Source: Sphingomonas sp. 67-36
Lineage (GTDB): Bacteria > Pseudomonadota > Alphaproteobacteria > Sphingomonadales > Sphingomonadaceae
DNA: 64,000 nucleotides
Direction of reading: 5' to 3'
NCBI GenBank assembly: GCA_001897375.1
Contig: MKSU01000005.1
Coordinates: 124,001 to 188,000, forward strand
Position 1 is the stretch's first letter. Each line of letters opens with the position of its first letter. The translations under genes were made by a program, and so were the position numbers. The notes beneath the pieces were generated by a model. It was not told the DNA's origin. It ran no database searches and worked only from the letters and a program-made list of their open reading frames with translations. Below, piece by piece: positions 24,446-40,263 of the stretch.

Positions 24446-25780
24446 TCAGGCGATGCGGCCGTCGGCCGCGACGGTGTCGTTCGCCTCGGCCGTCGCGCGC
24501 GGCGGCGCGGCGGGCGTGGCGGCGGATTGATGGGCGCGCTGCTGCTGTTGCTGTTGCGACAGCGTCTGCCCGGCGGTGTCGGCGGAACCGCCGGTGGTGG
24601 CGGAGAGCTTGATCCCGCGCGCTTCGGCCAGCTCCGTGAGGCGCGGCTGCGCGTCGGCGAGGATCTGCCGCGTCTCCGGCTGATGCGCGTCGAGCCGCAC
24701 GGACACGCCGTCGCCCTCGCGCTTCAGCGTCACGTCGATCTTGCCGAGCGCGTCGGGGATCAGGCGGATGCTGGCGTCATTGGCGTTGGCGGCGTCGCGC
24801 AGCGCGTCGATCCGCTGGATCATCTGCTGCGGCCAGTTGTCCTGCTTCATGTCGAGCGCGGCGTGGCGCGAATCGGCCGTCGCAGCGACCGCGTGGAGCG
24901 TGTTGTCGGTGCCGGCGGGCGGCGCGGCGAGCATCGGCTGGCCGGTCGCCGGGCGGTCCTCGACGGCGGCGCGCTGGATCGCGGCGGCGAACACCTGCGC
25001 GGCGGGCGCGATCCGCGCCGCTTGCGGCTCGGCCGGAGCGGGCGCCGCAATCGCGAGGGGAACAGCGGATGCGCCCGGCTGCGATTCGGGCTTCGCCGTT
25101 GGCGACGCCTGCATCGCCGCAACCTTGTCCGGTATCGCGGGGGCGACCTTCATGGCCTGCGCGACCAGTGATGCCTGCGCAGCATCGGCGGGCGCGGGCG
25201 ACGAATCCGGTGTCGCGGGAACGGTGACGGGCGATGACTGGGCGGTCTGCGCCGGATCGAGCGCCGGGATCGGAGATTGCGTCGATGCGGCGTTCGCGAC
25301 GGTCCCGCCCGACGGCGGGGCGAGATCGGGTTGCGGCGTGCCGACGGGCGTGGGCCGATCGGCCGTCACTTCCGGTTGCGTGGCGGTGACGACCGACGAG
25401 TCCGTGGCCTGCGCCGGTACGGCCGGCTCCTGATCGGCGATGACGGGAAGCTGCATCTGCGGGCGCGGGGCCGGCGCCGTCACCGGCAATGCCGCTGCAT
25501 CCGCTTTGGCTGGCGTGGGCGGCGCGGTCGGGGCAACGAGAATCGACACCAGCGCCGGCGCGATCCACGCAAGGTCTTCGGCGTGATCCTCGCTGTCGCC
25601 GTCCGGCAAATCCTTGCCGGGCGCGGCATCCTTTTGCCGGGGGTCGGCCGCGTCGTCGACGGCGCCTGCCACAGGGGCGAGCAGCGCGGGGAAAGCGCTG
25701 GCCGACGGCGCCGCGCCGGGCGCGGCGACGGGAATCCCGCTCTTTGGTGTCGTCAGTGCCAGGGTTGAAACTGCGGTCAT
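24446..25780 (-). CDS. fliK: FliK-like flagellar hook-length control protein
   Basis: 444 residues. The first 300 are Ala/Pro/Thr-rich and of low complexity. The C-terminal domain (about 325-420) has the FliK hook-length motif pattern: QQMIQRIDALRDAANANDASIRLIPDALGKIDVTLKREGDGVSVRL. It is followed by a Gln-rich tail. FliK measures the hook and triggers the FlhB substrate switch. The ATG at 25780 lies 40 bp after fliJ and about 32 bp downstream of the predicted start site of a sigma-54 promoter in the fliJ 3' end. Confidence 0.88.
   Translation of the reverse strand: MTAVSTLALTTPKSGIPVAAPGAAPSASAFPALLAPVAGAVDDAADPRQKDAAPGKDLPDGDSEDHAEDLAWIAPALVSILVAPTAPPTPAKADAAALPVTAPAPRPQMQLPVIADQEPAVPAQATDSSVVTATQPEVTADRPTPVGTPQPDLAPPSGGTVANAASTQSPIPALDPAQTAQSSPVTVPATPDSSPAPADAAQASLVAQAMKVAPAIPDKVAAMQASPTAKPESQPGASAVPLAIAAPAPAEPQAARIAPAAQVFAAAIQRAAVEDRPATGQPMLAAPPAGTDNTLHAVAATADSRHAALDMKQDNWPQQMIQRIDALRDAANANDASIRLIPDALGKIDVTLKREGDGVSVRLDAHQPETRQILADAQPRLTELAEARGIKLSATTGGSADTAGQTLSQQQQQQRAHQSAATPAAPPRATAEANDTVAADGRIA
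25603..25620. promoter_or_regulatory. CGGCAA-N4-TTGCCG palindrome in early fliK
   Basis: CCGGCAA-ATCC-TTGCCGG forms 7-bp perfect arms around 4 bp. The same core (CGGCAA, 4 bp, TTGCCG) occurs in the flgB/motA-like promoter region and in the transglycosylase gene. It is a candidate site for the flagellar sigma-54 activator, about 190 bp downstream of the predicted fliK start site. Confidence 0.4.
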
Positions 25781-25820
25781 GAGCACCTGCGTGTCGCCGG
25801 GATTGGCCCCGCAGGACCGT

Positions 25821-26240
25821 TCAGCAAGGATCGTGCCGAATCTTCCGCACCGGCGGCGCATCGCGCAATGCGCGGATTTCGCGCAGCGCCGCTTCGGCCA
25901 GCCCGCGCTCGATCAGCTTCTCCACCGCGCTCTGGTCGCGCTTCGCGGCACGGGTCGCCTCGGCGGCGCGCGCGGCCTCCGCCTCGGCGGTGCGGACGCG
26001 GTCGGCGGCGGTTTCGGCCGAGCGGTGCAGCCGATCGCGGTAATGCGCCGCCGCCGCGAGCGAGAAACCCGCCGCGCGATCCTCCACCGGGGAGACCTGC
26101 TCGGCGAGCCGGGCGATGCGCGAGGACAGCGCCGATTCCTGCTCATGCGCCGCCCGCGCGCGCATCTCGTCCGCCTGCGCGAGGCCGAGCTGGAGCGTCC
26201 GCACGCGCAGCACCCGCGCGAGCTTGGCGGGATCAGCCAT
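25821..26240 (-). CDS. fliJ: FliJ, flagellar export protein
   Basis: 139 residues, almost entirely alpha-helical coiled coil with many Ala, Arg and Glu (ADEMRARAAHEQESALSSRIARLAEQVSPVEDRAAG). FliJ is the central stalk of the export ATPase, like the gamma subunit of F1. Sequence conservation is low; the assignment rests on size, coiled-coil nature and position directly after fliI (8-bp overlap). Confidence 0.85.
   Translation of the reverse strand: MADPAKLARVLRVRTLQLGLAQADEMRARAAHEQESALSSRIARLAEQVSPVEDRAAGFSLAAAAHYRDRLHRSAETAADRVRTAEAEAARAAEATRAAKRDQSAVEKLIERGLAEAALREIRALRDAPPVRKIRHDPC
25824..25838 (-). promoter_or_regulatory. Sigma-54 promoter for fliK
   Basis: Minus strand reads CGGCACG-ATCC-TTGC, matching the -24/-12 consensus TGGCACG-N4-TTGC at all but the first base. 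It lies inside the 3' end of fliJ. Predicted transcription starts near 25812, leaving a 31-base leader with AGGTG before the fliK ATG. Confidence 0.75.
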
Positions 26241-27561
26241 CGCCGAACACGCCGGTCAGCTCGGCGATCGAATCCTCCAGCGGCACGACCGCGTCGGCGT
26301 CCTGCCGCACGAACTCCATCACGGCGGGGTGATAGGCGATGGCGGCGTCGATCTCCGGGTCGCTGCCGCTGCGATAGGCGCCCATCAGCACCAGATCGCG
26401 ATTCTCCTCATAAGTCGCGAGATGCCGGCGCAGCACGCGCGCGGCGCGCAGATGCGCGGGCGCGGCGATATCGGTCATCACGCGGCTCACCGATTTCGAC
26501 ACGTCGATCGCCGGATAGACCGCGCGTTCGGCGAGCGCGCGGCTCAGCACGATATGCCCGTCGAGGATCGAGCGCGCCGAATCGACCACCGGGTCGTTGC
26601 CGTCGTCGCCGTCCGCCAGCACGGTGTAGATCGCGGTGATCGACCCGCCGGAGGTGACGTCCGTCCCCGCCCGCTCGATCAGATTGGGCAGCATCGCGAT
26701 CGCCGACGGCGGATAGCCGCGCGCCGATGCCGGTTCGCCCAGCGCCAGCCCGATCTCGCGCCCGGCATGGGCGACGCGGGTCAGCGAATCCATGATGAGC
26801 AGCACGTCCTTGCCCTCGGCGCGGAAGCCTTCCGCGATGGCGGTGGCGCGCAGCGCGCCCCTGATGCGCAGCACCGGCGAATGGTTGGCCGGCACCGCGA
26901 CGACGACGCTCTTGGCGCGCGCCTCGCCCGCCACCTTGGTCTCGAGGAAGTCGGCCACCTCGCGGCTGCGCTCGCCGATCAGCCCGATGACGATCACGTC
27001 GGCCCTGGCGGCGCGCACCATCATGCCGAGCAGCACCGATTTGCCGACGCCCGATCCGGCCATGATGCCGATGCGCTGGCCCTTGCCGATCGTCAGCAGC
27101 CCGTTGATCGCGCGCACGCCGACATCGAGCGGCTGGAGCACGCGCCCGCGATCGAGCGGCGACTGGAGCTTGCCGGCGAGCGGCCATGCGCCCGCGCCGC
27201 GGATCGCGCCCAGCCCGTCGATCGGTCGCCCCGCCCCGTCGACCACGCGGCCGAGCAGCGCCGCGCCGACCTCCGCCTCGCCCGGCGGGCCGATCGGGCG
27301 CACCGGGGCGTGCGGCAGCAGCGCCGCCGGGCCGCCGAGGTTCATCAGCAAGGTGCGGCCGTTGCGGAAACCGATCACCTCGGCCTCGACGCCCGCCCCC
27401 TTCTCGCCGACCTGGCAGACGGTGCCGACCGGCAGGTTCAGCCCGATCGCCTCCATCAGCAGCCCGTCGAACGAGGCGAGCCGGCCGGAAACCTTCGGCG
27501 CGGGCCGGAAATCGGCATCGGCCAGCGCGGTGAGATAATCGTCGGCGAACAGGTTCAGCAT
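26233..27561 (-). CDS. fliI: FliI, flagellum-specific export ATPase
   Basis: 442 residues starting at MLNLFADDYL; the A of the ATG is the last base of the fliH stop. The F1-type ATPase core is clear: Walker A AGSGVGKS at 168-175, Walker B VLLIMDSLTR, and the catalytic-glutamate region VIVIGLIGERSREV. It energises export with FliH and FliJ. An upstream in-frame ATG lies inside fliH and is not used. Confidence 0.96.
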   Translation of the reverse strand: MLNLFADDYLTALADADFRPAPKVSGRLASFDGLLMEAIGLNLPVGTVCQVGEKGAGVEAEVIGFRNGRTLLMNLGGPAALLPHAPVRPIGPPGEAEVGAALLGRVVDGAGRPIDGLGAIRGAGAWPLAGKLQSPLDRGRVLQPLDVGVRAINGLLTIGKGQRIGIMAGSGVGKSVLLGMMVRAARADVIVIGLIGERSREVADFLETKVAGEARAKSVVVAVPANHSPVLRIRGALRATAIAEGFRAEGKDVLLIMDSLTRVAHAGREIGLALGEPASARGYPPSAIAMLPNLIERAGTDVTSGGSITAIYTVLADGDDGNDPVVDSARSILDGHIVLSRALAERAVYPAIDVSKSVSRVMTDIAAPAHLRAARVLRRHLATYEENRDLVLMGAYRSGSDPEIDAAIAYHPAVMEFVRQDADAVVPLEDSIAELTGVFGDG

Positions 27562-28316
27562 CAGTGCGCGTCGCCGTCGGGAAGCGCCACCTTGTCCAGT
27601 GTCCGGGCGAGCTGCTCCAGCCACAGCTCCGGCCCGTCCTCCACGATGGTCGAGGCGGCCTCCATCACGAAGCTGCCGCGCGCCACGCCGGCGTCGCCGG
27701 CCGCGAAGACCGTGTCGGGCAGATGACCCTCCAGCAGCGCGATGTCGGCCGGGTTGACACGCAGGATCGCGCTTTCCGCCGCATCGGCCAGCAGGTCGGT
27801 CGCGGCGTTGACCCGCGCGGCGAGCAGCGCGCCGGACACGCCGGTCTCGCCGACCAGCCGGGTCACGAGATGCAGCACCGTCTGGCGCAGGTTGCGCGCC
27901 AGTTGCTCGCGATCGATCCGCGTGTCGGAACGCAGCGCCTCGACCAGCCGGGCAAGCATCGCGCGGTCGCGCTCCGCCGCCTCGCCCTGCTCGGCGTGCG
28001 CGGCGGCGATACCCTCCGCGAAGCCGGCGTCGTGCGCCGCCTGCCGCGCCACCTCCGCCGGGTCGATGAACGGCGTCGGCTCCGCATCCGAATCGAGCGG
28101 GTCCCAGCCCTTCGTCGGCATGGCGTCGCGGTTGGCCGGCGTATAGCCGCGCGGCGCCTCGCCGGTTTCGCCGCCGCCGCCGAACGCCTGCCTGATCCGC
28201 GCGATGAGATCGGCGGGGGCGAAGCCGCTCGGCTGCTCAGCGAACATGCGTTGCAGGCGGATCGCGGCATCGTCGTGCCGCGCGGAAAGGCCCGCGACGA
28301 AAGCGTGCTCAGACAT
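27561..28316 (-). CDS. fliH: FliH, flagellar export ATPase regulator
   Basis: 251 residues. An acidic, Gly-rich N-terminal half leads to a helix with GxxxG-like and Ala/Glu-rich segments (ARQAAHDAGFAEGIAAAHAEQGEAAERD) and a C-terminal V-ATPase-E-like domain (LEGHLPDTVFAAGDAGVARGSFVMEAASTIVEDGPELWLEQLARTLD, the usual last block). FliH binds FliI and anchors it to the C-ring through FliN. It overlaps fliG by 8 bp. Confidence 0.88.
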   Translation of the reverse strand: MSEHAFVAGLSARHDDAAIRLQRMFAEQPSGFAPADLIARIRQAFGGGGETGEAPRGYTPANRDAMPTKGWDPLDSDAEPTPFIDPAEVARQAAHDAGFAEGIAAAHAEQGEAAERDRAMLARLVEALRSDTRIDREQLARNLRQTVLHLVTRLVGETGVSGALLAARVNAATDLLADAAESAILRVNPADIALLEGHLPDTVFAAGDAGVARGSFVMEAASTIVEDGPELWLEQLARTLDKVALPDGDAH

Positions 28317-29340
28317 AATCGTCCTCGCCTCCGCCCATCTGGATCGTGCCGTCCTTGGCGAGGTTGCGCGCGATCTGGATGATCGCCTTCTGCGCCTCCA
28401 GCACTTCGGATAGCTTCATCGGGCCGCGCGCCTCCATCTCGTCGCGGATGCCGTCCGCCGCGCGGGCCGACATGCAGCCGAGGAAGCGGCTGCGCGCCGC
28501 TTCGTCCACGCCCTTCAGCGCGCGGGTCAGGATGTCGCCGTCGATGTTGCGGATCAGCGTGCCGAGGTTCTTGTCGTCCATGTCGAGCAGATTGTCGAAC
28601 ACGAACAGCGCCTCCTCGATCGCCTTGGCGGTTTCCTTGTCGAGCTTGAACAGCTTGGGCATCACGCGCTGCTCGGTCGCCTTGCGCGCGCTCTGCAGGA
28701 TCTTCGCCGCCTCGCGCGTGCCGCCGAGCTGCACCTGCGTCGCCTGCTGGCCCGCGCCGCTGCGGTTGGCGAGCATGTGGCGCAGCGTCTCCACCGCTTC
28801 GGGTGTGATCGGGCCGAGCTTGGCGATGCGATGCAGGATTTCGGGCTGGATCGCGTCGGGCAGCAATTCGAGCACCTGGCTGCCGACCGACGGATCGAGA
28901 TTGGCGATCAGCACGGCGGCGATCTGCGGATGTTCCTTCTCGATCATGCCGGCGATCTCGCTCGCGTCGAGCCAGTCGAGCAGGTCGATCTCGCACGCGG
29001 CTTCCGCCGGGGTGATGCGGGCGAGCACGCTGTCGGCCTTTTCCTGGCCGAGCGCGCGGTGCATCACCGCCTCGATCTTCGGGCGCGGGTCGAAGGCGAT
29101 GCCGGTGCGCTCGCGCGCGCGGCCGACGAAATCGTCGAGCACGCCTTCCACCTCCGCCTCGCTCACGTCGGCGACGGTGAACATCGCCTTGCCGAGCTGG
29201 CGCACCTCGTCGGGTTCCAGTTTCTGGAGGATGGCGGCGGCTTCCTCCTCGCCGACCAGCATCATCAGCACGGCGGCGCGCTCGACGCCGCTGAAGCTGC
29301 GGACGAGGGCGGTCGTGGGGGCGGTCGTCGGCGCGTTCAC
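28309..29340 (-). CDS. fliG: FliG, flagellar motor switch protein
   Basis: 343 residues with the three FliG domains: N-terminal (ERAAVLMMLVGEEEAAAILQKLEPDEVRQLG), middle EHPQ motif (MIEKEHPQIAAVLIANLD) and C-terminal torque domain (FVFDNLLDMDDKNLGTLIRNIDGDILTRALKGVDEAARSRFLGCMSARAADGIRDEMEARGPMKLSEV). The charged torque-helix residues (D, R, E) that contact the stator are present. It overlaps fliF by 4 bp. Confidence 0.96.
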   Translation of the reverse strand: MNAPTTAPTTALVRSFSGVERAAVLMMLVGEEEAAAILQKLEPDEVRQLGKAMFTVADVSEAEVEGVLDDFVGRARERTGIAFDPRPKIEAVMHRALGQEKADSVLARITPAEAACEIDLLDWLDASEIAGMIEKEHPQIAAVLIANLDPSVGSQVLELLPDAIQPEILHRIAKLGPITPEAVETLRHMLANRSGAGQQATQVQLGGTREAAKILQSARKATEQRVMPKLFKLDKETAKAIEEALFVFDNLLDMDDKNLGTLIRNIDGDILTRALKGVDEAARSRFLGCMSARAADGIRDEMEARGPMKLSEVLEAQKAIIQIARNLAKDGTIQMGGGEDDYV

Positions 29341-31055
29341 CGGCCGTCCGCCTTGATCATGTCGCGCACCGCCAGCGCGGCGCGGGCGGGATTGTCGCGG
29401 GTGAAGCCGCGCACCGCGCCGACGCGCTCCTCATAGCTTTGCGCGCTTTCGAGGTCGTCGATGCTGACCGGGCCGGTGACGCGGATGCCGCCTTCGGCCG
29501 CGCCGCCCTCGCCGGTGGCGCTGCCCATCGGCATCCCGTCCGGCCCCACCAGCGCCGGCCTGGCGCCGGGGGTGGAGGCTTCCTCGCGCTTCTTCATCAG
29601 CGCGGCGGCGAGCGGGCGGACGCCGAGCAGCAGCACCAGCAGCGCGATGACGATCGCGGTGAGGTTGCGCGCGATCATCGGCAGCCAGCTGTTGTCATAC
29701 CATTTCGGCCCGCTGGCGGCGTCGGCGGCATCGGCGAACTTCTTGCTGATGACGGTGACATTGTCCTGCCGGCTGGCGTCGAAGCCGACCGCCGACTTCA
29801 CCAGATCGGTGATCTGGCCGATCTCCATCGCGGTGCGCCGGCCTTTTTCCGGTTCGCGCAGCAGGACGGCGACGGACAGCCGCTTGATCCCGCCCGGCGC
29901 GGCGCGCGTCACCGAGACTTCCTTGCCGAGGTCGTAGGCGCGCTGGAACTGGTCGGACTGTTTGTTCGCGTCGGGCGCGGGGCCGCCGGCGACCGGGGTC
30001 GGCGAGGCGGCCGGTTGCGGCTGGCCGCTGTCGCCGGTCGCGGGCTGCGGCTTCTGCAACATGCTGGCCGGGGGCGGGGTGTTGCTCAGCGCGCCGGGGA
30101 TGCCGCCGGGCGTCGGCGTTCCGTTCGTCGCCTGATTCCCCGTCCAGTTCCCCGCCTCGGCGCGCAGGGCGCCCTGCTTGTCGTAGCTTTCGCGCGTCGC
30201 CTGCGTCTCGTCGAGGTTGACGTCGGCCTGCACCTCGGCGGTGAAATTGCCCGCGCCGACCAGCGGCGTCAGGAGCTGGAGGAGCTGCTGGCGATATTTG
30301 TCTTCGATCTGGCGCTGGAAACGGATACGCTGCTCGCTGCCATTGTCCACCTGGCCGCCGGACTTGGACAGCAACGCGCCCATCTGGTCGACCACCGTGA
30401 CATTGTCCGGCTTCATCCCCGGCACCGACGAGGCAACGAGGTTGACGATCGAGGCGACCTGCGCGTCGGATAGCGACCGCCCCGGCTGGAGCTTCAGCAC
30501 CACCGAGGCGGAGGGCGCGGCATTGTCGCGCACGAACACGCTGGCTTCGGGCGTCGCGAGATGCACGCGCGCCTCGACCACCGCGTCGATCTCCTGGATC
30601 GAGCGTGCGATCTCCGTCTCGCGCGCCTGCCGCAGCCGCTCGCCTTCCACCGCGCGGGACACGCCCATCGGAAGCTGGTCGAGGATGGCGTAGCCGGCGG
30701 GCGCGGTCTTGGGCAGGCCCTGCCCGGCGAGCAGCATCCGCGCCTTGGCGAAATCCTCGTCCGCAACCGTGATCGAATCCGTGCCGGTATCGACATGGCT
30801 CTTGATGTTCGCGGCGGTCAGCGCGGAGGTGACAGCGGCCTTGTCGCCGTCGGCCAGGCCGGAGAACAAAGTCTTCTGCGGCGGCGTCGACAGCATCGAC
30901 CAGGCAAGCGCGGCCGCGCCGATCAGGCCGATCAGCAAGGCCATCGGCCCGGCACGGCGCACCGCGGGCTGCGCGAGCATGCCCTGGATCTGCCGGAGCG
31001 GATTGGCGAACCTCTCGGGAATCACCGGGTTTGCGGGGGTAAGTGCGTTGGCCAT
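29337..31055 (-). CDS. fliF: FliF, flagellar MS-ring protein
   Basis: 572 residues, typical length. Two transmembrane segments (about 38-56 and 462-480) flank the periplasmic ring-building motifs (LFSGLADGDKAAVTSALTAANI, RVHLATPEASVFVRDNAAPSASVVL). The C-terminal FliG-binding tail (QSYEERVGAVRGFTRDNPARAALAVRDMIK) is intact. The gene starts 3 bp after fliE. Confidence 0.96.
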   Translation of the reverse strand: MANALTPANPVIPERFANPLRQIQGMLAQPAVRRAGPMALLIGLIGAAALAWSMLSTPPQKTLFSGLADGDKAAVTSALTAANIKSHVDTGTDSITVADEDFAKARMLLAGQGLPKTAPAGYAILDQLPMGVSRAVEGERLRQARETEIARSIQEIDAVVEARVHLATPEASVFVRDNAAPSASVVLKLQPGRSLSDAQVASIVNLVASSVPGMKPDNVTVVDQMGALLSKSGGQVDNGSEQRIRFQRQIEDKYRQQLLQLLTPLVGAGNFTAEVQADVNLDETQATRESYDKQGALRAEAGNWTGNQATNGTPTPGGIPGALSNTPPPASMLQKPQPATGDSGQPQPAASPTPVAGGPAPDANKQSDQFQRAYDLGKEVSVTRAAPGGIKRLSVAVLLREPEKGRRTAMEIGQITDLVKSAVGFDASRQDNVTVISKKFADAADAASGPKWYDNSWLPMIARNLTAIVIALLVLLLGVRPLAAALMKKREEASTPGARPALVGPDGMPMGSATGEGGAAEGGIRVTGPVSIDDLESAQSYEERVGAVRGFTRDNPARAALAVRDMIKADGR

Positions 31056-31058
31056 ATC

Positions 31059-31417: not shown

Positions 31418-31421
<4 letters not shown>
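31059..31421 (-). CDS. fliE: FliE, flagellar hook-basal body adaptor
   Basis: 120 residues. The conserved C-terminal helix pair is clear (SFAQSMESALSKVNDTQQKASALSESYERGETVDIAKVMLARQEASVGFEATLQVRNKILSAYKDIMSMPV). FliE joins the MS ring to the rod and is the first exported component. The start overlaps the stop of the sigma-54 activator gene by 4 bp. Confidence 0.94.
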
Positions 31422-32677
<1,256 letters not shown>

Positions 32678-32867
32678 TTTCCCCCTCGTTCCCTGTGCGA
32701 TCGAAACTGCGGGAAAAAGGTTAACGAGCGGTATAGGACGTTGCCGGCCGGCAGATTTTTTCCGGGCGCGCGCGGCCGCTGCGTGCCCCCGTGCGCAAGC
32801 GTATGCGGCGCGCGCGCGTGTCCGCACATTGGCCGGGGGACGGCGGAATTTTTTTGCAGGCGAGTGC

Positions 32868-32894
32868 TAAATCGCGCCGGCGCCCGGTCGTTTC
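32868..32894 (+). promoter_or_regulatory. Candidate sigma-28 (FliA) promoter for flagellin
   Basis: TAAA (32868-32871), 15 bp, GTCGTTTC (32887-32894). The spacing and the CGTTT core match the flgM and fliD candidates. The predicted leader is about 60 bases with GGAGAA at 32953-32958 before the flagellin ATG. Confidence 0.6.
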
Positions 32895-32963
32895 GGGTGG
32901 TGACGGCCCGGCCATCCGCACATCGGGGGGCGGCGGACCCGTCAGCCACGACGGAGAACGATT

Positions 32964-33794
32964 ATGACGGTTATCGCAACCAACACCGCCGCAATGCGCG
33001 CCACTGCGGCCTCGGTCAGCGCCAACAGCGCGCTTTCGACCGCGATGGAGCGCCTTTCGACGGGCAAGCGCATCAACTCGGCCAAGGACGACGCCGCCGG
33101 CCTCGCCATCGCCGCGTCGATGACCTCGCAGATCCGCGGCATGAGCCAGGGCATCCGCAACGCCAATGACGGCATCTCGATGGCGCAGACCGCCGAAGGC
33201 GCGCTGGACGAAGTGACCAACATGCTCCAGCGTATGCGCGAACTGGCGGTGCAGGCCGGTAACGACACCTATTCGAGCGACGACAAGGCGAATATCGCCA
33301 AGGAGCAGAAGGCGCTCGCCACCCAGATCGACTCTGTGCTGAAGAACACCGTGTTCAACAACCAGCATCTGTTCGACGGCACGGCCGGCACGAGCGGGAC
33401 GGTGACGATCCAGGCGGGTGCGAACTCGTCCGACACGGTGACGCTGGACCTGTCCACGGACCTGACCGCTTCCAGCAGCAAGACCACCACGGTCACCGCC
33501 GCCGCCAGCGACACGACGCCGATCACCGATCTGTCGCAGTTCGACGATGCGATCACCGAGATCTCCGGAACCCGTGCTGGCCTCGGCGCTTCGCAGAACC
33601 AGCTCGAATCGGCGGTCAACAACCTGACGTCGAACGTCACCAACCTGTCCGACGCGCAGAGCCGGATCGAGGACGCCGATTTCTCGACCGAATCGACCAA
33701 CCTCGCCAAGGCGCAGATCCTGAGCCAGGCGTCCACCGCGATGCTCGCGCAAGCCAATCAGTCGCAGCAGGGCGTGCTGAAGCTGCTCCAGTAA
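32964..33794 (+). CDS. fliC: Flagellin
   Basis: 276 residues. Conserved D0/D1 N-terminal ([46 protein letters not shown]) and C-terminal halves ([35 protein letters not shown]...GVLKLLQ) are joined by a short Thr/Ser-rich middle (about 145-195). D2/D3 surface domains are therefore essentially absent. GGAGAA gives a good ribosome site. The gene has its own promoter and a strong terminator, so it is monocistronic. It is divergent from the activator gene. Confidence 0.97.
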
Positions 33795-33847
33795 GCGAGT
33801 GATCGGTTTCGGCGCCGCCCCCCCAAAGGGTGTCGGAGCCGATTGCG

Positions 33848-33880
33848 AACCCCGGCAGCCGCAAGGTTGCCGGGGTTTTC
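33848..33880 (+). terminator. Rho-independent terminator after flagellin
   Basis: A perfect 10-bp stem AACCCCGGCA / TGCCGGGGTT (33848-33857 and 33868-33877) with a 10-base loop, running into TTTTC and then TTTG. It lies 54 bp after the flagellin stop. Confidence 0.88.
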
Positions 33881-33988
33881 GTTTGTGGGAATAGGGATGA
33901 CAAGAAGCTCCCCTTTTCTCGAGGAAAGACCGGGGGGCAGTGCCGCAGGCGAATGTCCCGGTGAAACGGTGCCTCCTCCGGCCCTGAG

Positions 33989-34738
33989 TTAGCGCGGCGT
34001 CAGGGCCTTCTTCAGTCTCGCGTGCGCGGCGGCCTTGATCTGGCACACGCGCGCGGCGCCGACGCCCAGCACCTGCCCGATCTCCTCGAGGTTCAGTTCC
34101 TCGACGTGATAGAGGTGGATCACCAGCCGCTCCCGCTCGGGCAGCGCGGCGACCGCGTCGGTCAGCAGGTCGCGCACCTCGCCTTCGGCGAGTTGGTCGA
34201 ATGCGCTCGGCTCGTCGCTGGCGAACCAGGGCTGGTCGTCGGCATAGACCTCGTCGATCGGATCGAAGCGCACCGCCTCGGCGGTGGCATATTCGGCGCG
34301 GAGCTTCTCCACCGTCACGCCCAGCCGCGCGGCCGTCTCGCCGTCGGTCGGGGCGCGGCCAAGCTCGCCCGCGAGCTGCCCGGTCACGCGCTGATAGTCG
34401 CGGCGGCGGCGGATCGCGCCGCGCGTCATCGCGGCGTGGCGGCGCAGTTCGTCGATCATCGCGCCGCGTAGCCGCGTCGTGAGATATTGCCGGAACGTCA
34501 CCTGCCCGCGATCCTCGAACGCGGCGGCTGCCTCGACCAGCGCGACGAGGCCGACCTGCACGAGATCCTCCACCTCCACCGCCGTCGAGACGCTGCCGTG
34601 GACATGCCACGCCAGCCGCCGGACAAGCGGCAGATGCTCGTGGACCAGCGCATTCTCGTCCTTCACGCGCGCGCGCGGACTATAAGTGAGCGGAGCGGCG
34701 CCGGCGAAGGCGTCGCGGTGCGGCAGCTCGGCGCTCAT
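33989..34738 (-). CDS. fliA: FliA, sigma-28 factor for late flagellar genes
   Basis: 249 residues. Region 2 (NALVHEHLPLVRRLAWHVHGSVSTAVEVEDLVQVGLVALVEAAAAF, TFRQYLTTRLRGAMIDELRR) and region 4 (LPERERLVIHLYHVEELNLEEIGQVLGVGAARVCQIKAAAHARLKKAL) are intact with a region 3 between. The start overlaps the flhA stop (ATGA). It is transcribed from the sigma-54 promoter upstream of the transglycosylase, which makes it the middle step of the cascade; FlgM, encoded nearby, is its antagonist. Confidence 0.94.
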   Translation of the reverse strand: MSAELPHRDAFAGAAPLTYSPRARVKDENALVHEHLPLVRRLAWHVHGSVSTAVEVEDLVQVGLVALVEAAAAFEDRGQVTFRQYLTTRLRGAMIDELRRHAAMTRGAIRRRRDYQRVTGQLAGELGRAPTDGETAARLGVTVEKLRAEYATAEAVRFDPIDEVYADDQPWFASDEPSAFDQLAEGEVRDLLTDAVAALPERERLVIHLYHVEELNLEEIGQVLGVGAARVCQIKAAAHARLKKALTPR

Positions 34739-36795
34739 GCGGGCAGCGCTTCCGGCGCGCCGATAATGGCGACGACTTCGACGGCCTTGTCTTCCGGTAC
34801 TTCGAAGAAGCTCATGACAGGGGTATCCGGCAGCACGGTTTTGACGAGTTTGCGGATCGCGACGCGGATCGCCGGCTGGACGACCAGCGCGAACGGCTTC
34901 GCTTCGTTGATGAGCGGCTGGGCGGCGCGTTGCAGCGCATCGACGATGCGGCGGCCGAGGTCCGGCTCGATCACATGCCGGCGCGACGGATCGCCGCGCA
35001 CCGCCTGGCCCAGCAGGCCTTCTAGCTGACCCTCCAGCGTCATCACGCGCAGCGGCTCGCGCACGCCGCACAGCTTCTGGATGATCAGCGGGCCGAGTTC
35101 GGGCCGGATCAGCTCGACGATCTCCTCGGCGTCCTGCGTCTTCTGCGCGACGACCGCGATCGCGGAGGCGATGCGGCGGAACTCCCGGAGCGGCACGCCC
35201 TCGGCGAGCAGGCTGCGCAGCACCGTCGTCAACGTCGTGATCGGCAACGGCTGCGGCGAGAGCGAGGCGACGAGCTGCGGGTTGCGCTCCTTGAGGCCGT
35301 CGAGCAGCGCCTGCGTCTCGTCGGCGCTCAGCAGGTCGGCGGCATTGGCGCCGAGGACGTGGTTGAGGTGCGTCGCGATGACGGTGCCCGAATCGACCAC
35401 CAGATAGCCGGCGCCGGTCGCGGCGTCGGCGTCGCCCGGCGCGATCCATGTCGCGTCGAGGCCGAAGGTCGGGTCCTTCGCCTTCTTGCCCTTGAGGTCG
35501 CCGAAGCCGGTGCCGGTGTCGAGCGCCAGCATCTCGTCGGGCGAGACCTGATCCTCGCCGAGCACCACGCCGCCGACCAGCAGGCGATAGGTATAAGGCG
35601 CGAGGTTGATGTCGTCGCGCACCTTCACCTGCGGCACGACGAAGCCGAGTTCCTTGGAGAGCTGACGCCTGACGCCGGTGATCCGCGACATCAGCGGGCT
35701 GCCCTTGCGCTCGTCGACCAGCGGCACGAGGCCGTAGCCGATATCGAGGTTTATCATCATCCCGTCGGTCACCTCGTCCCAGCCGATGCGGGACTGGTCG
35801 ACCGGCTCGGGCGTCACTTCCGTCACCGGGGCGGGGCGGTTGGCGATCTGGCGCAGCTTCCACGCGGTGAAGCCGGCGATCGCGGCGGCGGGCAGGATCA
35901 CCAGATGCGGCATCCCCGGCAGCACGCCGAGCAGGAACAGGATTCCCGCCACCGGCGTCCAGGTGCGCGGCGATCCGAACTGGCTGCCGATCTGGCCGGC
36001 GAGGTCCTTGTCGGATGAGACGCGGGTGACGATCGCGGCGGCGGCGATCGACAGCATCAGGCTGGGAAGCTGCGCGACGAGCGCGTCGCCGATCGCGAGC
36101 AGGGTATAGCCCTTCGCCGCCGCGCCGATCGACATGCCGTGGCTTACGGGTCCGAGGATCAGTCCGCCGACGATGTTCGCCGCGAGGATCAGGATGGCGG
36201 CGATCGCGTCGCCCTTCACGAACTTGGACGAACCGTCCATCGATCCGTAGAAATCCGCCTCGGTCGCCACCTCGACGCGGCGCTTCTTGGCCTCGTCCGG
36301 GGTGATGAGGCCGGCGTTTAGATCGGCGTCGATCGCCATCTGCTTGCCGGGCAGCGCGTCGAGGGTGAAGCGCGCCGACACTTCGGAGACGCGGCCGGCG
36401 CCCTTGGTCACCACGATCAGGTTGATGATCATCAGGATCGCGAAGACGAAGATGCCGACGACATAGTCGCCGCCGATCAGGAAGGTGCCGAACGCCTCGA
36501 TCACATGGCCGGCGGCGCTCTCCCCCTCATGCCCGTGCACCAGCACGACGCGGGTGGAGGCGACGTTGAGGCCGAGCCGGAACAGGGTGGCGAACAGCAG
36601 CACCGTCGGGAAGGCGGAGAAGTCGAGCGGCTTCTGCGCGTTCAACGCCACCATCAGCACCGCGAGGCTGATCGCGATATTGGCGACGAAGAACACGTCG
36701 AGCAGCGCCGCCGGGATCGGCACCACCATCACGACGACCAGCAGCAGGATCGCCAGCGGCAGCGCGGCGGCGCGGGGATTGCCGAGGAACTTCAT
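34735..36795 (-). CDS. flhA: FlhA, flagellar export component
   Basis: 686 residues. The membrane half (about 1-330) has eight hydrophobic segments and the conserved cytoplasmic FHIPEP-type loop (KPLDFSAFPTVLLFATLFRLGLNVASTRVVL, GDYVVGIFVFAILMIINLIVVTKGAGRVSEVSARFTLDALPGKQMAIDADLNAG). The cytoplasmic domain (about 350-686) is the docking platform for chaperone-substrate complexes. It lies 6 bp after the transglycosylase gene. Confidence 0.96.
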   Translation of the reverse strand: MKFLGNPRAAALPLAILLLVVVMVVPIPAALLDVFFVANIAISLAVLMVALNAQKPLDFSAFPTVLLFATLFRLGLNVASTRVVLVHGHEGESAAGHVIEAFGTFLIGGDYVVGIFVFAILMIINLIVVTKGAGRVSEVSARFTLDALPGKQMAIDADLNAGLITPDEAKKRRVEVATEADFYGSMDGSSKFVKGDAIAAILILAANIVGGLILGPVSHGMSIGAAAKGYTLLAIGDALVAQLPSLMLSIAAAAIVTRVSSDKDLAGQIGSQFGSPRTWTPVAGILFLLGVLPGMPHLVILPAAAIAGFTAWKLRQIANRPAPVTEVTPEPVDQSRIGWDEVTDGMMINLDIGYGLVPLVDERKGSPLMSRITGVRRQLSKELGFVVPQVKVRDDINLAPYTYRLLVGGVVLGEDQVSPDEMLALDTGTGFGDLKGKKAKDPTFGLDATWIAPGDADAATGAGYLVVDSGTVIATHLNHVLGANAADLLSADETQALLDGLKERNPQLVASLSPQPLPITTLTTVLRSLLAEGVPLREFRRIASAIAVVAQKTQDAEEIVELIRPELGPLIIQKLCGVREPLRVMTLEGQLEGLLGQAVRGDPSRRHVIEPDLGRRIVDALQRAAQPLINEAKPFALVVQPAIRVAIRKLVKTVLPDTPVMSFFEVPEDKAVEVVAIIGAPEALPA

Positions 36796-36801
36796 CGCGG
36801 C

Positions 36802-37656
36802 TTAGCCCCCCATCCGTGCGAGCATCATATAGGCCAGCCGGGCGGTGTCCGGCGTCGGGCGCAGCAGGCTCGCCGCCTGCGCCTGCGCACCGCGCGCGCC
36901 GAGCGCGGCGCTGGCCCAGCTCAGCGCGTCGGTCGCGCTCTGGTTCGCGCCGGTGACGACGGTGGCGCCGTCCATGTCGAGTGCCTGCGCGGCGAACTGC
37001 ATGGCCGGCAATCCGTTGCCGGTATTGCCGGCATTGCCGCTGCCGTCCCCCAGCTTGGCGGCGAAGCGCTGGTAGACGTCGGCCAGTGATCGCGCGCTGC
37101 CGTCGCTGTTGTAGAACACGCCGCGATTGGCGCGCGCGGCGGCCGGGAACAGGCCGGCGGCGCTGGTGCCGGGGTTGCTCTGCATGTTGGCGAGGAAGCG
37201 CCGCGCGCCGCCCAGCCCAAGGAAATGCGCCATATAGAGGTCGGTGCCGGTCGCCTCGCGGCCGGTGGCGCTTTCCAGCGCGTCCTTGTTGTCGGAGGCG
37301 TGCTCGGCGGCCATTGCGGAGGCGATCTCCGGGTTGTTGCGCAGGGCAAGGATCGCCTGTTTCGTCGCGCTGTCGCTGACCGTCATGCGGCCGGACGCGT
37401 TGCGACTGATCGCGTCGGCGGCCCAGCCGAGGCCGTATTCGCTGCCGTGCTGCTTCATCACCGACAGCCAGCTCTGCTCGACGAACTGGTACAGCCCGCG
37501 CGCCGAGGAGGTCGTAGCGGAAGCGCTGGCGTTGAGGCCGCTTTCGACCTTCGCCTGGCCGAGCAGATAGTCGAAATCGATCCCGGTGCGCGCAGCCGCC
37601 CGCTGGATCGCGGACTGGATACGGCCGGAGTTCGAGGCAATGGCGTTGACGGTCAT
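36802..37656 (-). CDS. Lytic transglycosylase (SLT domain), flagellum-associated
   Basis: 284 residues. The family-1 transglycosylase signature is at the N-terminus: catalytic E38 in AKVESGLN, then SSARGLYQFVEQSWL. A helical domain and an Ala/Gly-rich C-terminus follow. It should open peptidoglycan for the rod, the job done by the muramidase half of FlgJ in enterics; the FlgJ here lacks that half. No Sec signal peptide is seen (MTVNAIASNSGRIQSAIQRA), so export through the flagellar apparatus itself is likely. It heads an operon with flhA and fliA behind a sigma-54 promoter. Confidence 0.88.
   Translation of the reverse strand: MTVNAIASNSGRIQSAIQRAAARTGIDFDYLLGQAKVESGLNASASATTSSARGLYQFVEQSWLSVMKQHGSEYGLGWAADAISRNASGRMTVSDSATKQAILALRNNPEIASAMAAEHASDNKDALESATGREATGTDLYMAHFLGLGGARRFLANMQSNPGTSAAGLFPAAARANRGVFYNSDGSARSLADVYQRFAAKLGDGSGNAGNTGNGLPAMQFAAQALDMDGATVVTGANQSATDALSWASAALGARGAQAQAASLLRPTPDTARLAYMMLARMGG
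37005..37022. promoter_or_regulatory. CGGCAA-N4-TTGCCG palindrome in the transglycosylase gene
   Basis: CCGGCAA-TCCG-TTGCCGG with 7-bp perfect arms, the same core and spacing as the sites at 25603 and 40248. It is about 660 bp downstream of the operon's predicted start site. It encodes a Gly-Asn-Gly-Leu stretch, so codon content may partly explain it. Confidence 0.3.
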
Positions 37657-37691
37657 CGTGCTGCGTCGGTTCCCTGTTCGGGATTAACACA

Positions 37692-37706
37692 GCAAGGATC
37701 GTGCCA
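37692..37706 (-). promoter_or_regulatory. Sigma-54 promoter for the transglycosylase-flhA-fliA operon
   Basis: Minus strand reads TGGCACG-ATCC-TTGC, an exact match to the -24/-12 consensus. The predicted start is near 37680, giving a 24-base leader to the ATG at 37656. Confidence 0.88.
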
Positions 37707-37745
37707 ATTCGTTAACCAACCCGCCCGCCAACGCGGCGGCGGGGA

Positions 37746-38060
37746 TCAGGCGTAGGCGGCGACCGGCCCGCGCCGATAGGCGTTGCCGCCCTCGCCGCTC
37801 AGCATCTGGAGCCGGCGGCGGACGTTGGCGGCCATCAGGTTGACGTAGATGCGGCACGTCTCGTTGAGCCGGTCCGCCTCGCTCGCCAGTTCCCGAAGCT
37901 CGGGGCCGGCGGGGCCGTCGCCGAGCGCGCGGAGCGTTTCGATCGCGGCGAGCTTGTCCGCCGTCGCGCGTTCCAGCCCGGCGATGTCGTTCGCCTTCAG
38001 CGCCGCGATCTCGGCATGGAGCGTCTCGATCACGCGGATCAGTGCGTCACGCCGGGTCAT
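37746..38060 (-). CDS. flgN: FlgN-like export chaperone
   Basis: 104 residues, fully helical (LIRVIETLHAEIAALKANDIAGLERATADKLAAIETL, then LNETCRIYVNLMAANVRRRLQML), with size and heptad pattern of FlgN, the chaperone of the hook-filament junction proteins FlgK and FlgL. The assignment depends mainly on its place after flgM (14-bp overlap), the classical gene pair. Confidence 0.82.
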   Translation of the reverse strand: MTRRDALIRVIETLHAEIAALKANDIAGLERATADKLAAIETLRALGDGPAGPELRELASEADRLNETCRIYVNLMAANVRRRLQMLSGEGGNAYRRGPVAAYA

Positions 38061-38349
38061 TGGACAGCCAGTCGTAGCGCAGCGCGATCAGCCGGTCGGC
38101 GAGCGTCGCTGGGGAAATCGGGAAAGTGCCGTTCGCCAATGCTTCCTTGATCCGCTTCACGCGATCCGCATCGACCGGCGGTTTCGTGGCGAGCTGCGAG
38201 GCGAGCGTCTGCGGCTGCCGGCTCTGCGACACCGAGGTATCGGACTGGCTGGAGACCGCCGGCACCGCATCGGGAGCCTGGACGCGCACGACCGGCACGA
38301 CCGGCAGGTCGTTTGTCGTGACAGGCTTCGCGCCGATCGAATCCACCAT
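38047..38349 (-). CDS. flgM: FlgM, anti-sigma-28 factor
   Basis: 100 residues with a disordered N-terminus and the FlgM C-terminal sigma-binding helices (VDADRVKRIKEALANGTFPISPATLADRLIALRYDWL). FlgM holds FliA inactive until it is exported through the finished hook. It has its own sigma-28 promoter, so it is under feedback control by FliA, as in enterics. AAAGGTG serves as ribosome site. Confidence 0.9.
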   Translation of the reverse strand: MVDSIGAKPVTTNDLPVVPVVRVQAPDAVPAVSSQSDTSVSQSRQPQTLASQLATKPPVDADRVKRIKEALANGTFPISPATLADRLIALRYDWLSNDPA

Positions 38350-38382
38350 GTCCGCACCTTTCCGGTTTCGCTGACATGGCGA

Positions 38383-38409
38383 TAAACGGCGGCTTGCGGA
38401 AAAGTTTTA
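38383..38409 (-). promoter_or_regulatory. Sigma-28 (FliA) promoter for flgM-flgN
   Basis: TAAA (38409-38406), exactly 15 bp, GCCGTTTA (38390-38383), matching GCCGATAA at six of eight bases. The predicted start is about 27 bases before the flgM ATG, with AAAGGTG inside that leader. It lies in the 96-bp gap after flgA, which holds nothing else evident. Confidence 0.75.
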
Positions 38410-38445
38410 GAAACTTTTTTCGCGGCGCCGGGGCAAGGGACGACA

Positions 38446-38949
38446 TCACTGCTCGGTCCAGCCCGGCAGCGTCGCGCGGCCCGGCTCGACCGCGACCGCC
38501 TGAACCGGCGCGCGCGAATTGTCGACCTTCACCATCAGCCGCTCGCCGGCGGCGGCATCGCCCATCGCGACGCCCTCGCGCGTGATCGAGAAGCCGTCCG
38601 ATCCAGCCTCGATCGTCAGCGGGTCGCCGCGCTTGATGACCTTTTCCGCGTTCCGCGCCGCGGCGGGCGCGGCGGCGGGAGCGGAGATGATCGTGGTGCG
38701 CGCCGGCATCACCACCGGCACGAAGACGCGCCATTCCGGCCCGGTGCAGGTGACGACCACCGCGTCATGCGCGTCGGTGCGCCACGCCATCGACACCATC
38801 GGGCATGACGCGAGGCGCAGGCGCGAATCGACCGGCGCGCGCGCGCCGCCCTCCTCCCCGATCGGCCGCCCCGTGAAGGCGGCGACGCCGCGATCGAGCG
38901 CGGGGATATCCTGGAACGAGGCTGCGGCGAGCAGGGCGAGAACGATCAT
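38446..38949 (-). CDS. flgA: FlgA, P-ring assembly chaperone
   Basis: 167 residues. A short signal peptide (MIVLALLAAASFQD) is followed by a SAF-like beta domain: IKRGDPLTIEAGSDGFSITREGVAMGDAAAGERLMVKVDNSRAPVQAVAVEPG. This is the typical C-terminal FlgA block. It assists FlgI assembly in the periplasm. The ATG overlaps the stop of the MotB-like gene. Shorter than enteric FlgA (about 220), with a reduced N-terminal region. Confidence 0.88.
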   Translation of the reverse strand: MIVLALLAAASFQDIPALDRGVAAFTGRPIGEEGGARAPVDSRLRLASCPMVSMAWRTDAHDAVVVTCTGPEWRVFVPVVMPARTTIISAPAAAPAAARNAEKVIKRGDPLTIEAGSDGFSITREGVAMGDAAAGERLMVKVDNSRAPVQAVAVEPGRATLPGWTEQ

Positions 38950-39488
38950 CTGGCGTTTCCTTCGCCCGCGAACGCGAGCGTGACGGTGACCCGGCGTTGG
39001 CCGGGGCGGTTGGTGGTGGCGACGAGGATGCGGCCGGGCGCGACCTGGCCCAACGCGGCGGCGACGGCGCGGGCGCGATCGGCGGCGAGCACCGCGGCGC
39101 TGCCGGTGGAAGGGTCGACATCGGCGGGCGTGCCGTCCGTGCCGCCGGTGACGGTGAGCGCTACGCGCGGATCGCGCGCCGCTTCCCGCGCCCATCCGAC
39201 CAGCGCGTCCGGCGCCGCCGGCAGCGCGGCCGAGCCGGGCGCGAAGCCGCCGAGCGCATTGGCGGCGATCGGCATGGCTGGCGGTGTCGGCGCGCTCACC
39301 GGCTGGTCGCTCGCGCCGAAACCCTCACGCATCCCGTTGGCGAGGCGGCGCGGATCGAGATGGTGGTTGGCCTGCAGCAGCACGAAGAAGCCGACCAGCA
39401 GCAGCGCCAGGTCGGCGAGCGTGATCAGCCACAGCGGGCGGCCCGGCGCGCGCGCGGGAAATTCGTCGAAGGCGTCGGCGTCGGTCAC
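38946..39488 (-). CDS. MotB-like / OmpA-like stator protein, compact second copy
   Basis: 180 residues from a GTG that overlaps the MotA-like stop (GTGA). One transmembrane helix (LWLITLADLALLLVGFFVLLQ) carries D26, in register with the proton-binding aspartate of MotB. A short linker leads to a reduced C-terminal OmpA-like domain (VALTVTGGTDGTPADV, SAAVLAADRARAVAAAL, RVTVTLAF). The usual peptidoglycan-binding residues (TDxxG...N..LSxxRA) are only partly kept. It is clearly not the main MotB, which is at 50134. It could be an accessory stator or a TolR/ExbD-like energiser. Confidence 0.75.
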   Translation of the reverse strand: MTDADAFDEFPARAPGRPLWLITLADLALLLVGFFVLLQANHHLDPRRLANGMREGFGASDQPVSAPTPPAMPIAANALGGFAPGSAALPAAPDALVGWAREAARDPRVALTVTGGTDGTPADVDPSTGSAAVLAADRARAVAAALGQVAPGRILVATTNRPGQRRVTVTLAFAGEGNAR

Positions 39489-40156
39489 GATGCCTCCTCG
39501 CGCGCGGGTGAGAAGCTGACCGGGGCGATCGCTCGCGGCGCCTCGCGCGTGGCGAGCGCCGCGAGCGGCGTTTCCAGCCGGGCGCGCTCGAACGCCTCGG
39601 CGCGCGCGGCGGCGCGCAGCCGGCTGGCGACCGGCATGGCGAGGAGGTTGGCGACGATCGCGCCATAGAGCGTGGCGAGCAGCGCCACCGCCATCGCCTG
39701 ACCGATCGCGCGCGGGTCGCTCATCTGCGTGAACATCGCGACGAGGCCGACGAGCGTGCCGACCATGCCCATCGCGGGCGCGGCCTCGGCCATTCCCGCC
39801 CAGGCGTCGGCGGCGGCGGCATGGCGCTCGATCCGCGCGCGGCGGCGGTGGCGCAATTCCTGCGCGACCGTCTCGCCGCCCTCGCCGTCGACGATCATCG
39901 CGATGCCGGCGGCGAGATCGGGATCGACGATCACCGTGCGGTCGAGCGCGATCGTGCCGTGGCGGCGCGCGATGCGCGACAGCGAATGGATCTGCTCCAG
40001 CAGCGGCTCGGCGCTGAAGTCGCGGCGCGGCAGCGTGACGAGCGCCTTCAGCGCGCGCGCCAGATCGGCGGACGGCGTGCGCAGCATCGCCGCGACGATC
40101 GTGCCGCCGCCGACGATCACCGCCGCATAGGGGTCGAGGAACGTGCCGGGTGTCAT
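39485..40156 (-). CDS. MotA/TolQ/ExbB-family proton channel protein, second copy
   Basis: 223 residues with four hydrophobic segments. The conserved channel helices are EAAPAMGMVGTLVGLVAMF and AMAVALLATLYGAIVANLLAMPVASRL, and the cytoplasmic loop lies between helices 2 and 3. It is shorter than the canonical MotA at 49215. The ATG is only about one base downstream of the predicted start of its sigma-54 promoter, so the message would be leaderless. It is the first gene of an operon with the MotB-like gene and flgA, which ties it to the flagellum. Confidence 0.78.
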   Translation of the reverse strand: MTPGTFLDPYAAVIVGGGTIVAAMLRTPSADLARALKALVTLPRRDFSAEPLLEQIHSLSRIARRHGTIALDRTVIVDPDLAAGIAMIVDGEGGETVAQELRHRRRARIERHAAAADAWAGMAEAAPAMGMVGTLVGLVAMFTQMSDPRAIGQAMAVALLATLYGAIVANLLAMPVASRLRAAARAEAFERARLETPLAALATREAPRAIAPVSFSPAREEAS

Positions 40157-40168
40157 GCCCGCCCTTCC

Positions 40169-40183
40169 GCAAGGTGCGTGCCA
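40169..40183 (-). promoter_or_regulatory. Sigma-54 promoter for the motA-like/motB-like/flgA operon
   Basis: Minus strand reads TGGCACG-CACC-TTGC, an exact consensus match and identical to the flgB promoter on the other strand. C of the -12 GC is at 40169, so the start is near 40157, next to the ATG at 40156. Confidence 0.85.
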
Positions 40184-40226
40184 ATTGCCGGCTGGAGGAG
40201 GAGAGGCCCGCCACCCGGCCATCAGG

Positions 40227-40263
40227 CGGCAACCGTTGCCGGCCGCCCGGCAACATCTTGCCG
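40227..40263. promoter_or_regulatory. Paired palindromes, candidate activator sites between two divergent sigma-54 promoters
   Basis: CGGCAAC-C-GTTGCCG (40227-40241) and CGGCAA-CATC-TTGCCG (40248-40263) sit almost exactly midway between the two -24/-12 elements. This is the usual place for an enhancer serving both. The same core occurs at 25603 and 37005. The rest of the 205-bp gap holds only the two promoters and the flgB ribosome site. Confidence 0.55.

What the first reader, a model, noticed from the sequence alone, without database searches (positions are those of the whole stretch)
25603..40263. Recurring palindrome CGGCAA-N3/4-TTGCCG at flagellar sigma-54 loci
The core CGGCAA, 4 bp, TTGCCG occurs at 25603-25620 (early fliK), 37005-37022 (inside the transglycosylase gene) and 40248-40263, with an N3 variant at 40227-40241. 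Each lies in or near a transcription unit that also has a -24/-12 promoter. By eye I found no other copy in the window; from base composition alone about 0.01 would be expected in 64 kb. Activators of the FlbD/FleQ type can bind both up- and downstream of their promoters. This looks like the recognition site of the activator at 31418.
Basis: partly seen in the sequence, partly recalled or inferred. Interest (0 to 1): 0.75.

Follow-up and report, generated by a model that had tools for sequence, protein, structure and literature searches.

The report
Flagellar enhancer hidden inside fliK
A 16-base mirror-image DNA sequence beside flagellum genes of a Sphingomonas bacterium looks like the landing site of the gene-activating protein encoded next door, and one copy sits inside a protein-coding gene at a similar place in related bacteria and in one Pseudomonas record.

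Summary
The 4.0-Mb genome holds three exact CGGCAA-N4-TTGCCG sites and three strict sigma-54 promoters, each site near one promoter, all in this flagellar cluster. The fliK copy is kept within one mismatch in 95 of 98 sphingomonad loci (mean 0.42 for 89 permuted palindromes) and the flgB copy in 43 of 43. Different reading frames and distances inside fliK argue for selection on DNA.

Best reading: the enhancer of the activator at 31418-32677. That protein is FleR/FlrC-like, without a recognisable receiver domain or FliX; it is not a member of FlbD. One P. aeruginosa record (fleR-fliEFGHIJ) has an exact copy at a similar place in fliK. FlbD/FliX loci favour an N3 version, on partly biased evidence, and nine Sphingomonas genomes seem to carry both systems.

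Site 37006 is weaker: the same promoter usually has its site upstream. Activators acting from downstream of flagellar sigma-54 promoters are known (FlrC, FlbD), and a FleR motif is in print whose letters I could not see. Possibly new: this operator in this lineage, its depth in fliK, the N4/N3 split. No binding is shown.

The parts
25604..25619 (.). Site A1, exact CGGCAA-N4-TTGCCG inside fliK, centre about +200 from the predicted start of the fliK sigma-54 promoter
   Evidence: conserved
25624..25639 (.). Site A2, one-mismatch copy, centre 20 bp from A1 and in another reading frame of fliK, about +180
   Evidence: 20-bp spacing in 17 of 24 loci that have two or more sites
25823..25838 (-). sigma-54 promoter of the fliK operon, CGGCACGATCCTTGCT
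24446..25780 (-). fliK, the gene that holds sites A1 and A2
   Evidence: Pfam Flg_hook; start inferred
31418..32677 (-). FleR/FlrC-like sigma-54 activator (419 aa from the inferred ATG), first gene before fliEFGHIJ; the 469-aa GTG reading frame is probably too long
32719..32737 (.). CtrA-like box GGTTAACGAGCGGTATAGG before the activator gene (degenerate TTAA-N7-TTAA; the consensus is recalled)
   Evidence: similar in many of the 20 aligned loci
32749..32764 (.). Imperfect site CGGCAGATTTTTTCCG in the activator-fliC intergenic region, candidate autoregulatory site
37006..37021 (.). Site B, exact palindrome inside the transglycosylase-like gene, about +667 from its promoter; kept downstream in 6 of 39 loci
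   Evidence: the SLT match of the gene is under Pfam's cut-off, the gene at this place in Qipengyuania is annotated as transglycosylase
37691..37706 (-). sigma-54 promoter of the transglycosylase-flhA unit, TGGCACGATCCTTGCT
40168..40183 (-). sigma-54 promoter of the MotA/ExbB-like gene
40227..40241 (.). Site C1, exact N3 copy, about -77 and -99 from the two divergent predicted starts
40248..40263 (.). Site C2, exact N4 copy, about -98 and -78 from the two divergent predicted starts; conserved
40307..40322 (+). sigma-54 promoter of the flgB operon, TGGCACGCACCTTGCT

Best explanation
CGGCAA-N4-TTGCCG is the operator (enhancer) of the FleR/FlrC-like activator encoded at 31418-32677. A dimer binds each palindrome through its Fis-type helix-turn-helix. 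Paired sites about 20 bp (two helical turns) apart help the AAA+ ring assemble, DNA loops, and the ring remodels sigma-54 polymerase at the four -24/-12 promoters. One pair between the MotA/ExbB-like gene and flgB serves both divergent promoters. A pair about 180-200 bp downstream, inside fliK, serves the fliK operon. A site about 670 bp downstream serves transglycosylase-flhA. A weaker site beside a CtrA-like box before the activator's own operon is probably autoregulatory. Shown here by sequence: the sites, the promoters, rarity, conservation, DNA-level constraint and the shared recognition helix. Inferred: binding, looping, activation and autoregulation.
For: One-to-one pairing in the whole genome: 3 exact N4 palindromes and 3 strict sigma-54 promoters, all here.

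fliK 5' stretch: exact N4 in 73 of 98 loci and at most one mismatch in 95 of 98; 89 permuted palindromes gave 0 exact and a mean of 0.42 (maximum 3) within one mismatch. flgB upstream: exact N4 in 41 of 43, at most one mismatch in 43 of 43. Stretches inside fliI, fliG, fliF, flhA and the activator gene: 0 exact in 104, 106, 114, 42 and 114, and 1, 0, 0, 0, 0 within one mismatch. Of the 3 fliK misses, two loci show no fliK or fliL in the stretch held, and the third (L133) has an exact copy just outside the tested stretch.

The fliK site is read in different frames: in the window A1 reads GKDLP and A2 reads RQKDA; across 97 loci about 69 are in one frame and 21 in another by a heuristic. Its distance from the first in-frame start varies from 87 to 619 (heuristic). 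Distance to the predicted promoter start: median 212, range 168-620 in 66 loci.

Across classes: the P. aeruginosa record's only two exact copies in 847 kb lie inside fliK and flaG, and its FleR has nearly the same recognition helix (ISxRTLRYxLA) and gene order. Both exact copies on a Qipengyuania plasmid lie in the gene at the place of fliK and before flgB. FlrC sites downstream of starts act as true enhancers (review PMC6504787, passages seen).
Against: No binding or expression data. Related genomes are not independent. Site B is kept downstream in only 6 of 39 loci, and 6 of 39 have no site within one mismatch. In 30 of 96 loci with a fliK site my score found no promoter over the threshold. 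The arms also occur with other spacers: in the fliK stretch N1 in 5, N5 in 3, N11 in 9 of 98; before flgB N5 in 9, N6 in 6, N11 in 9 of 43, perhaps from neighbouring half-sites. Exact-copy counts per genome do not separate genomes with and without the activator: G002, G018, G023, G029 and G039 lack it at E 1e-80 yet hold 3, 1, 7, 8 and 8 copies. G029 has an exact flgB site although no activator was found. The motif search itself favours TTG leucine codons, so the codon counts (TTG 64 of 68 at the site; 367 of 3129 elsewhere) are biased.
Confidence: 0.86

Rival explanations
1. The palindromes bind a different regulator, for example a repressor or a nucleoid protein, that marks flagellar genes.
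For: No binding data tie the site to this activator; G029 keeps the flgB site although no activator was found.
Against: One-to-one pairing with strict sigma-54 promoters; a FleR-type recognition helix, the gene order and a fliK site recur together in a P. aeruginosa record; loci of FlbD, which has a related helix, show the same arms.
Confidence: 0.08
2. The fliK copy reflects a conserved peptide (GKxLP-like) rather than a DNA site.
For: About 69 of 97 loci read the site in the same frame, as does P. aeruginosa fliK.
Against: Other loci and site A2 read it in another frame; the distance from the start codon varies widely; the same sequence lies before flgB, outside that gene.
Confidence: 0.03
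3. Site B in the transglycosylase-like gene is a chance or relic match; only the fliK and flgB sites work.
For: Downstream copy in 6 of 39 loci; 28 of 39 have a site upstream of the promoter; it lies in a Gly-Asn-rich coding stretch.
Against: Exact arms with five different spacers among the 6 loci, 685 to 702 bases from the promoter, and L043 carries both positions.
Confidence: 0.35

Closest known systems
FlrC enhancers of Vibrio cholerae (Correa and Klose 2005, via review PMC6504787, passages seen)
   Same: Flagellar sigma-54 activator whose sites lie typically downstream of the start yet act as true enhancers; the fliKLMNOPQRflhB operon is in its class. Chains named flagellar regulatory protein C are the best PDB matches of the activator's AAA+ domain.
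   Different: FlrC has a receiver phosphorylated by FlrB; this activator has no recognisable receiver and no kinase gene beside it. I did not see the FlrC site sequence.
FleR of Pseudomonas
   Same: Upstream of fliEFGHIJ, recognition helix nearly the same, exact N4 palindrome inside fliK downstream of a sigma-54-like promoter in one P. aeruginosa record.
   Different: FleR has a receiver and the kinase FleS. A FleR motif from HT-SELEX in P. syringae is in print, with sites named at fliE and fliH (PMC7532196, passages seen); its letters were not in the passages, so whether it equals this palindrome is open.
FlbD and ftr elements of Caulobacter (PMC3930126 and PMC3096577, passages seen; primary papers not held)
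   Same: Same arms near FlbD and FliX loci; action of FlbD at ftr sites, repression of fliF included, and by title downstream and divergent elements, are in print.
   Different: N3 favoured near FliX, another residue after RTLR, works with FliX, which is absent here. The ftr letters were not seen.
FleQ/FleT of Rhodobacter sphaeroides Fla1 (PMC7277832, passages seen)
   Same: A second activator (FleT) shares an operon with fliEFGHIJ in an alphaproteobacterium.
   Different: Acts as a complex with FleQ; site sequence not seen; no sequence comparison made.

Membership tests
FleR/FlrC-like sigma-54 activators | AAA+ sigma-54 domain with Walker A and GAFTGA | tested here: met
   Pfam Sigma54_activat 7.4e-67; sequence shows GPTGTGKE and GAFTGA
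FleR/FlrC-like sigma-54 activators | Fis-type HTH with the FleR recognition helix | tested here: met
   HTH_8; ISERTLRYRLA against ISPRTLRYKLA in FleR
FleR/FlrC-like sigma-54 activators | Encoded directly before fliEFGHIJ | tested here: met
   (fliJ here by position only, no family match)
FleR/FlrC-like sigma-54 activators | N-terminal phosphorylatable receiver domain | tested here: not met
FleR/FlrC-like sigma-54 activators | Adjacent cognate kinase (FleS/FlrB) | tested here: not met
   Neighbours are fliE and flagellin; kinases elsewhere in the genome not searched
FlbD (NF050807) | Score over the curated cut-off | tested here: not met
   314 bits against 750, though it is the best-scoring NCBIfam model
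FlbD (NF050807) | FliX partner in the genome | tested here: not met
   0 FliX matches in G000; Caulobacter control positive
FleQ | Master regulator activating early genes, with c-di-GMP binding | not testable with these tools
   AAA+ match to FleQ in PDB is weaker than to FlrC (222 against 269.5 bits)
sigma-54 enhancer site | Binding by the activator | not testable with these tools
   sequence evidence only

The most novel reading that the evidence does not exclude
A one-base difference in spacer separates two flagellar regulons in the same cell. The FleR-like activator reads CGGCAA-N4-TTGCCG and FlbD/FliX reads CGGCAA-N3-TTGCCG with the same arms, so Sphingomonas species with both flagellar systems avoid cross-talk by half-site spacing alone. 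In nine genomes with both systems, all nine have exact N4 sites at fliK and at flgB, while seven of the nine FliX stretches have N3 sites within one mismatch (11 in all, one exact) and N4 there is near chance (2). Against strict exclusion: an exact N3 copy before flgB in 7 of 43 loci, and N4 as well as N5 near-copies around FlbD elsewhere in the class. I lowered this probability from 0.35 on re-checking, because four of the seven order-level FliX loci were chosen after N3 sites had been seen there.
Probability: 0.3. Interest if true: 0.72.

Novelty: new variant of a known kind. Interest (0 to 1): 0.48.

Why it matters
It gives a precise, testable operator for flagellar control in a large bacterial group. 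It shows a regulatory site kept deep inside a coding gene across genera, with a copy at a similar place in one P. aeruginosa fliK. It also offers a natural pair of systems in which half-site spacing may decide which of two related activators binds.

Tried and rejected
Counting exact palindromes per genome was not informative: genomes without the activator have similar counts, and the class-wide counts for N3 and N4 were not turned into a test. Single-mismatch sites genome-wide are near background. The invariant flgN site CGGCGAACATTTGCCG was not taken as strong evidence, because in the right frame it encodes a conserved AANVRR peptide. Sites in the V. campbellii and A. caviae stretches were unconvincing; the one exact copy found in each of those two records was not placed in a gene. 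No Caulobacter DNA was fetched; FlbD/FliX sites come from 18 class-level, 7 order-level and 13 genus loci. Codon counts were set aside as biased by the search. Frame calls of the fliK site are heuristic: 24 of 97 were flagged. The sigma-54 promoter score uses weights of my own, and start sites assume 12 bases after the -12 GC. In the one-mismatch count the two P. aeruginosa stretches L261 and L271 overlap, so that count is not used.
Full report
What is there. The window is from the genus Sphingomonas, judging by the titles of its closest relatives. It holds a flagellar cluster: fliK, fliL, fliM, an operon from a sigma-54 activator through fliE, F, G, H, I to a fliJ-like gene, flagellin, flhA, a transglycosylase-like gene, flgN, flgM, flgA, a MotA/ExbB-like gene and the flgB operon (FlgB named from its sequence; the SLT match is under Pfam's cut-off). 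A simple score finds four strong -24/-12 promoters inside the cluster, plus a weaker hit at 7355.

Is it chance? No. In 4,000,194 bases there are three exact N4 palindromes and three strict promoters; each palindrome lies near one promoter, all within about 15 kb. Relaxing to one mismatch gives 65 against 51 for the reversed control, so outside conserved places only exact sites carry weight.

Conservation. I took stretches of up to 20 kb around the activator from the 43 of 48 other genus genomes of the sample that have it, and from one order-level outgroup, plus 80 named loci, of which 10 duplicates were dropped. The fliK 5' stretch could be tested in 98 loci, the window included; 7 others ended too early, loci without fliI could not be tested, and the outgroup L056, where a separate search found no site, was left out. 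An exact N4 copy is in 73 and a copy within one mismatch in 95; 89 permuted palindromes gave none exact and a mean of 0.42 loci within one mismatch. Control stretches inside five other genes gave no exact copy and one copy within one mismatch. Upstream of flgB, 43 of 43 loci have a copy within one mismatch, 41 of them exact N4, next to a sigma-54 promoter and usually with a divergent one. The arms also occur with other spacers in some of these stretches, perhaps from neighbouring half-sites.

DNA or protein? The fliK site occurs in more than one reading frame across species (heuristic) and within the window, at variable distance from the start codon, with changing spacers. Paired sites are spaced 20 bp in 17 of 24 loci with two or more sites; where a promoter was found (66 of 96 loci), the site lies 168-620 bases downstream of the predicted start, median 212. 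The same sequence lies before flgB, outside that gene. I take this as a DNA site.

Site B. Of 39 loci with the transglycosylase promoter, 6 have the site downstream in that gene (685-702 bases), 28 have one upstream, one of these (L043) has both, and 6 have neither within one mismatch. The upstream sites sit at several positions in flgN. I read this as turnover of the site, with lower confidence; the commonest flgN version also encodes a conserved peptide.

The activator. Its best PDB match is the AAA+ domain of FlrC. In the plasmid collection a Qipengyuania gene is closest (60.0%), followed by an unannotated A. caviae gene (52.0%), FleR of P. aeruginosa (49.6%) and an unannotated V. campbellii gene (49.5%), over about two thirds of the protein; FlbD proteins of 18 class-level genomes give 42-48%. 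Among NCBIfam models FlbD scores best, but at 314 bits against a 750-bit cut-off. The genome has no FliX match. Its N-terminus shows no receiver by Pfam or alignment. Its recognition helix matches FleR almost exactly and FlbD partly. The start is more likely the ATG at 32677 than the GTG at 32827. Upstream lie a CtrA-like box and an imperfect palindrome, similar in many of 20 aligned loci; this resembles the control of early genes by CtrA and FlbD described for Caulobacter and suggests autoregulation, which is inference.

Across classes. The P. aeruginosa record has two exact copies in 847 kb, none for the reversed control, both in flagellar genes. One lies inside fliK, 269 bases from the start codon and, by arithmetic, about 318 downstream of a predicted sigma-54 start; the other lies in flaG. 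flgF has a one-mismatch copy with a two-mismatch neighbour 21 bp away, and flgB a two-mismatch copy upstream; one-mismatch copies also occur in other genes there. This is one record and the near copies are weak, but the fliK placement is striking. Records of A. caviae and V. campbellii hold one exact copy each, not placed.

N3 against N4. Around 18 FlbD genes elsewhere in the class, exact N3 copies number 5 and N4 3, against permuted means of 0.12 and 0.02; within one mismatch N3 18, N4 11 and N5 17. Around FliX in 7 order-level genomes exact N3 is 8 and N4 0; all 8 lie in the four genomes (G051, G057, G061, G063) that I picked after searches had shown an N3 site beside fliX, so this count is biased; the other three have no exact copy of either kind. 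In 13 Sphingomonas stretches chosen by FliX alone, N3 is 2 exact and 12 within one mismatch (0 of 89 permuted palindromes reach either), and N4 0 and 2 (34 of 89 reach 2). Nine Sphingomonas genomes hold this activator, FliX and an FlbD-like gene of 334-478 bits, none over the 750-bit cut-off. This is the basis of the bold reading.

Known and not known. Downstream enhancers of flagellar sigma-54 promoters are in print for FlrC and, by titles in a reference list, for Caulobacter. A FleR motif from P. syringae is in print, letters not seen. My searches of the held library and the passages seen in the papers opened showed no statement of this palindrome as a FleR, FlrC or FlbD site. Most subscription papers are not held, and supplementary files and figures were not read, so a published motif may exist; I lowered interest slightly for that reason.

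Noticed in passing
window 32677-32827: The activator's 469-aa GTG reading frame overlaps the conserved intergenic region; homologues start near the ATG at 32677, so that start would be 50 codons too long.
   Followed up: yes
window 32866-32893: TAAA-N15-GTCGTTT-like element before flagellin, similar in relatives, resembling a sigma-28 promoter (consensus recalled).
   Followed up: partly
L239-L243, L245, L248, L250, L251 with L049, L062, L065, L067, L072-L074, L076, L077: Nine Sphingomonas genomes appear to carry two flagellar control systems, this activator and FlbD/FliX.
   Followed up: partly
L262, L269 (NZ_CP098495.1): A flagellar cluster of this type lies on a 270-kb plasmid of Qipengyuania citrea, with both of its exact palindromes at the fliK and flgB places.
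   Followed up: yes
L261, L270, L271 (NZ_CP131792.1): An 847-kb P. aeruginosa record labelled a conjugative plasmid carries what look like core flagellar genes; it may hold chromosomal DNA.
   Followed up: no
L040-L079, about 130-220 bp beyond flhA: A recurring sigma-54-like match TGGCACGTCCATGGCA (or close to it) just beyond flhA in many loci, without a palindrome; perhaps coding conservation.
   Followed up: no
G000 C8:94275 (L005): The only exact N3 palindrome of the genome outside this cluster lies in a reading frame that looks TolC-like by eye, probably chance.
   Followed up: partly
L173 (G029): flgB keeps its exact site although no activator of this type was found in the genome.
   Followed up: no
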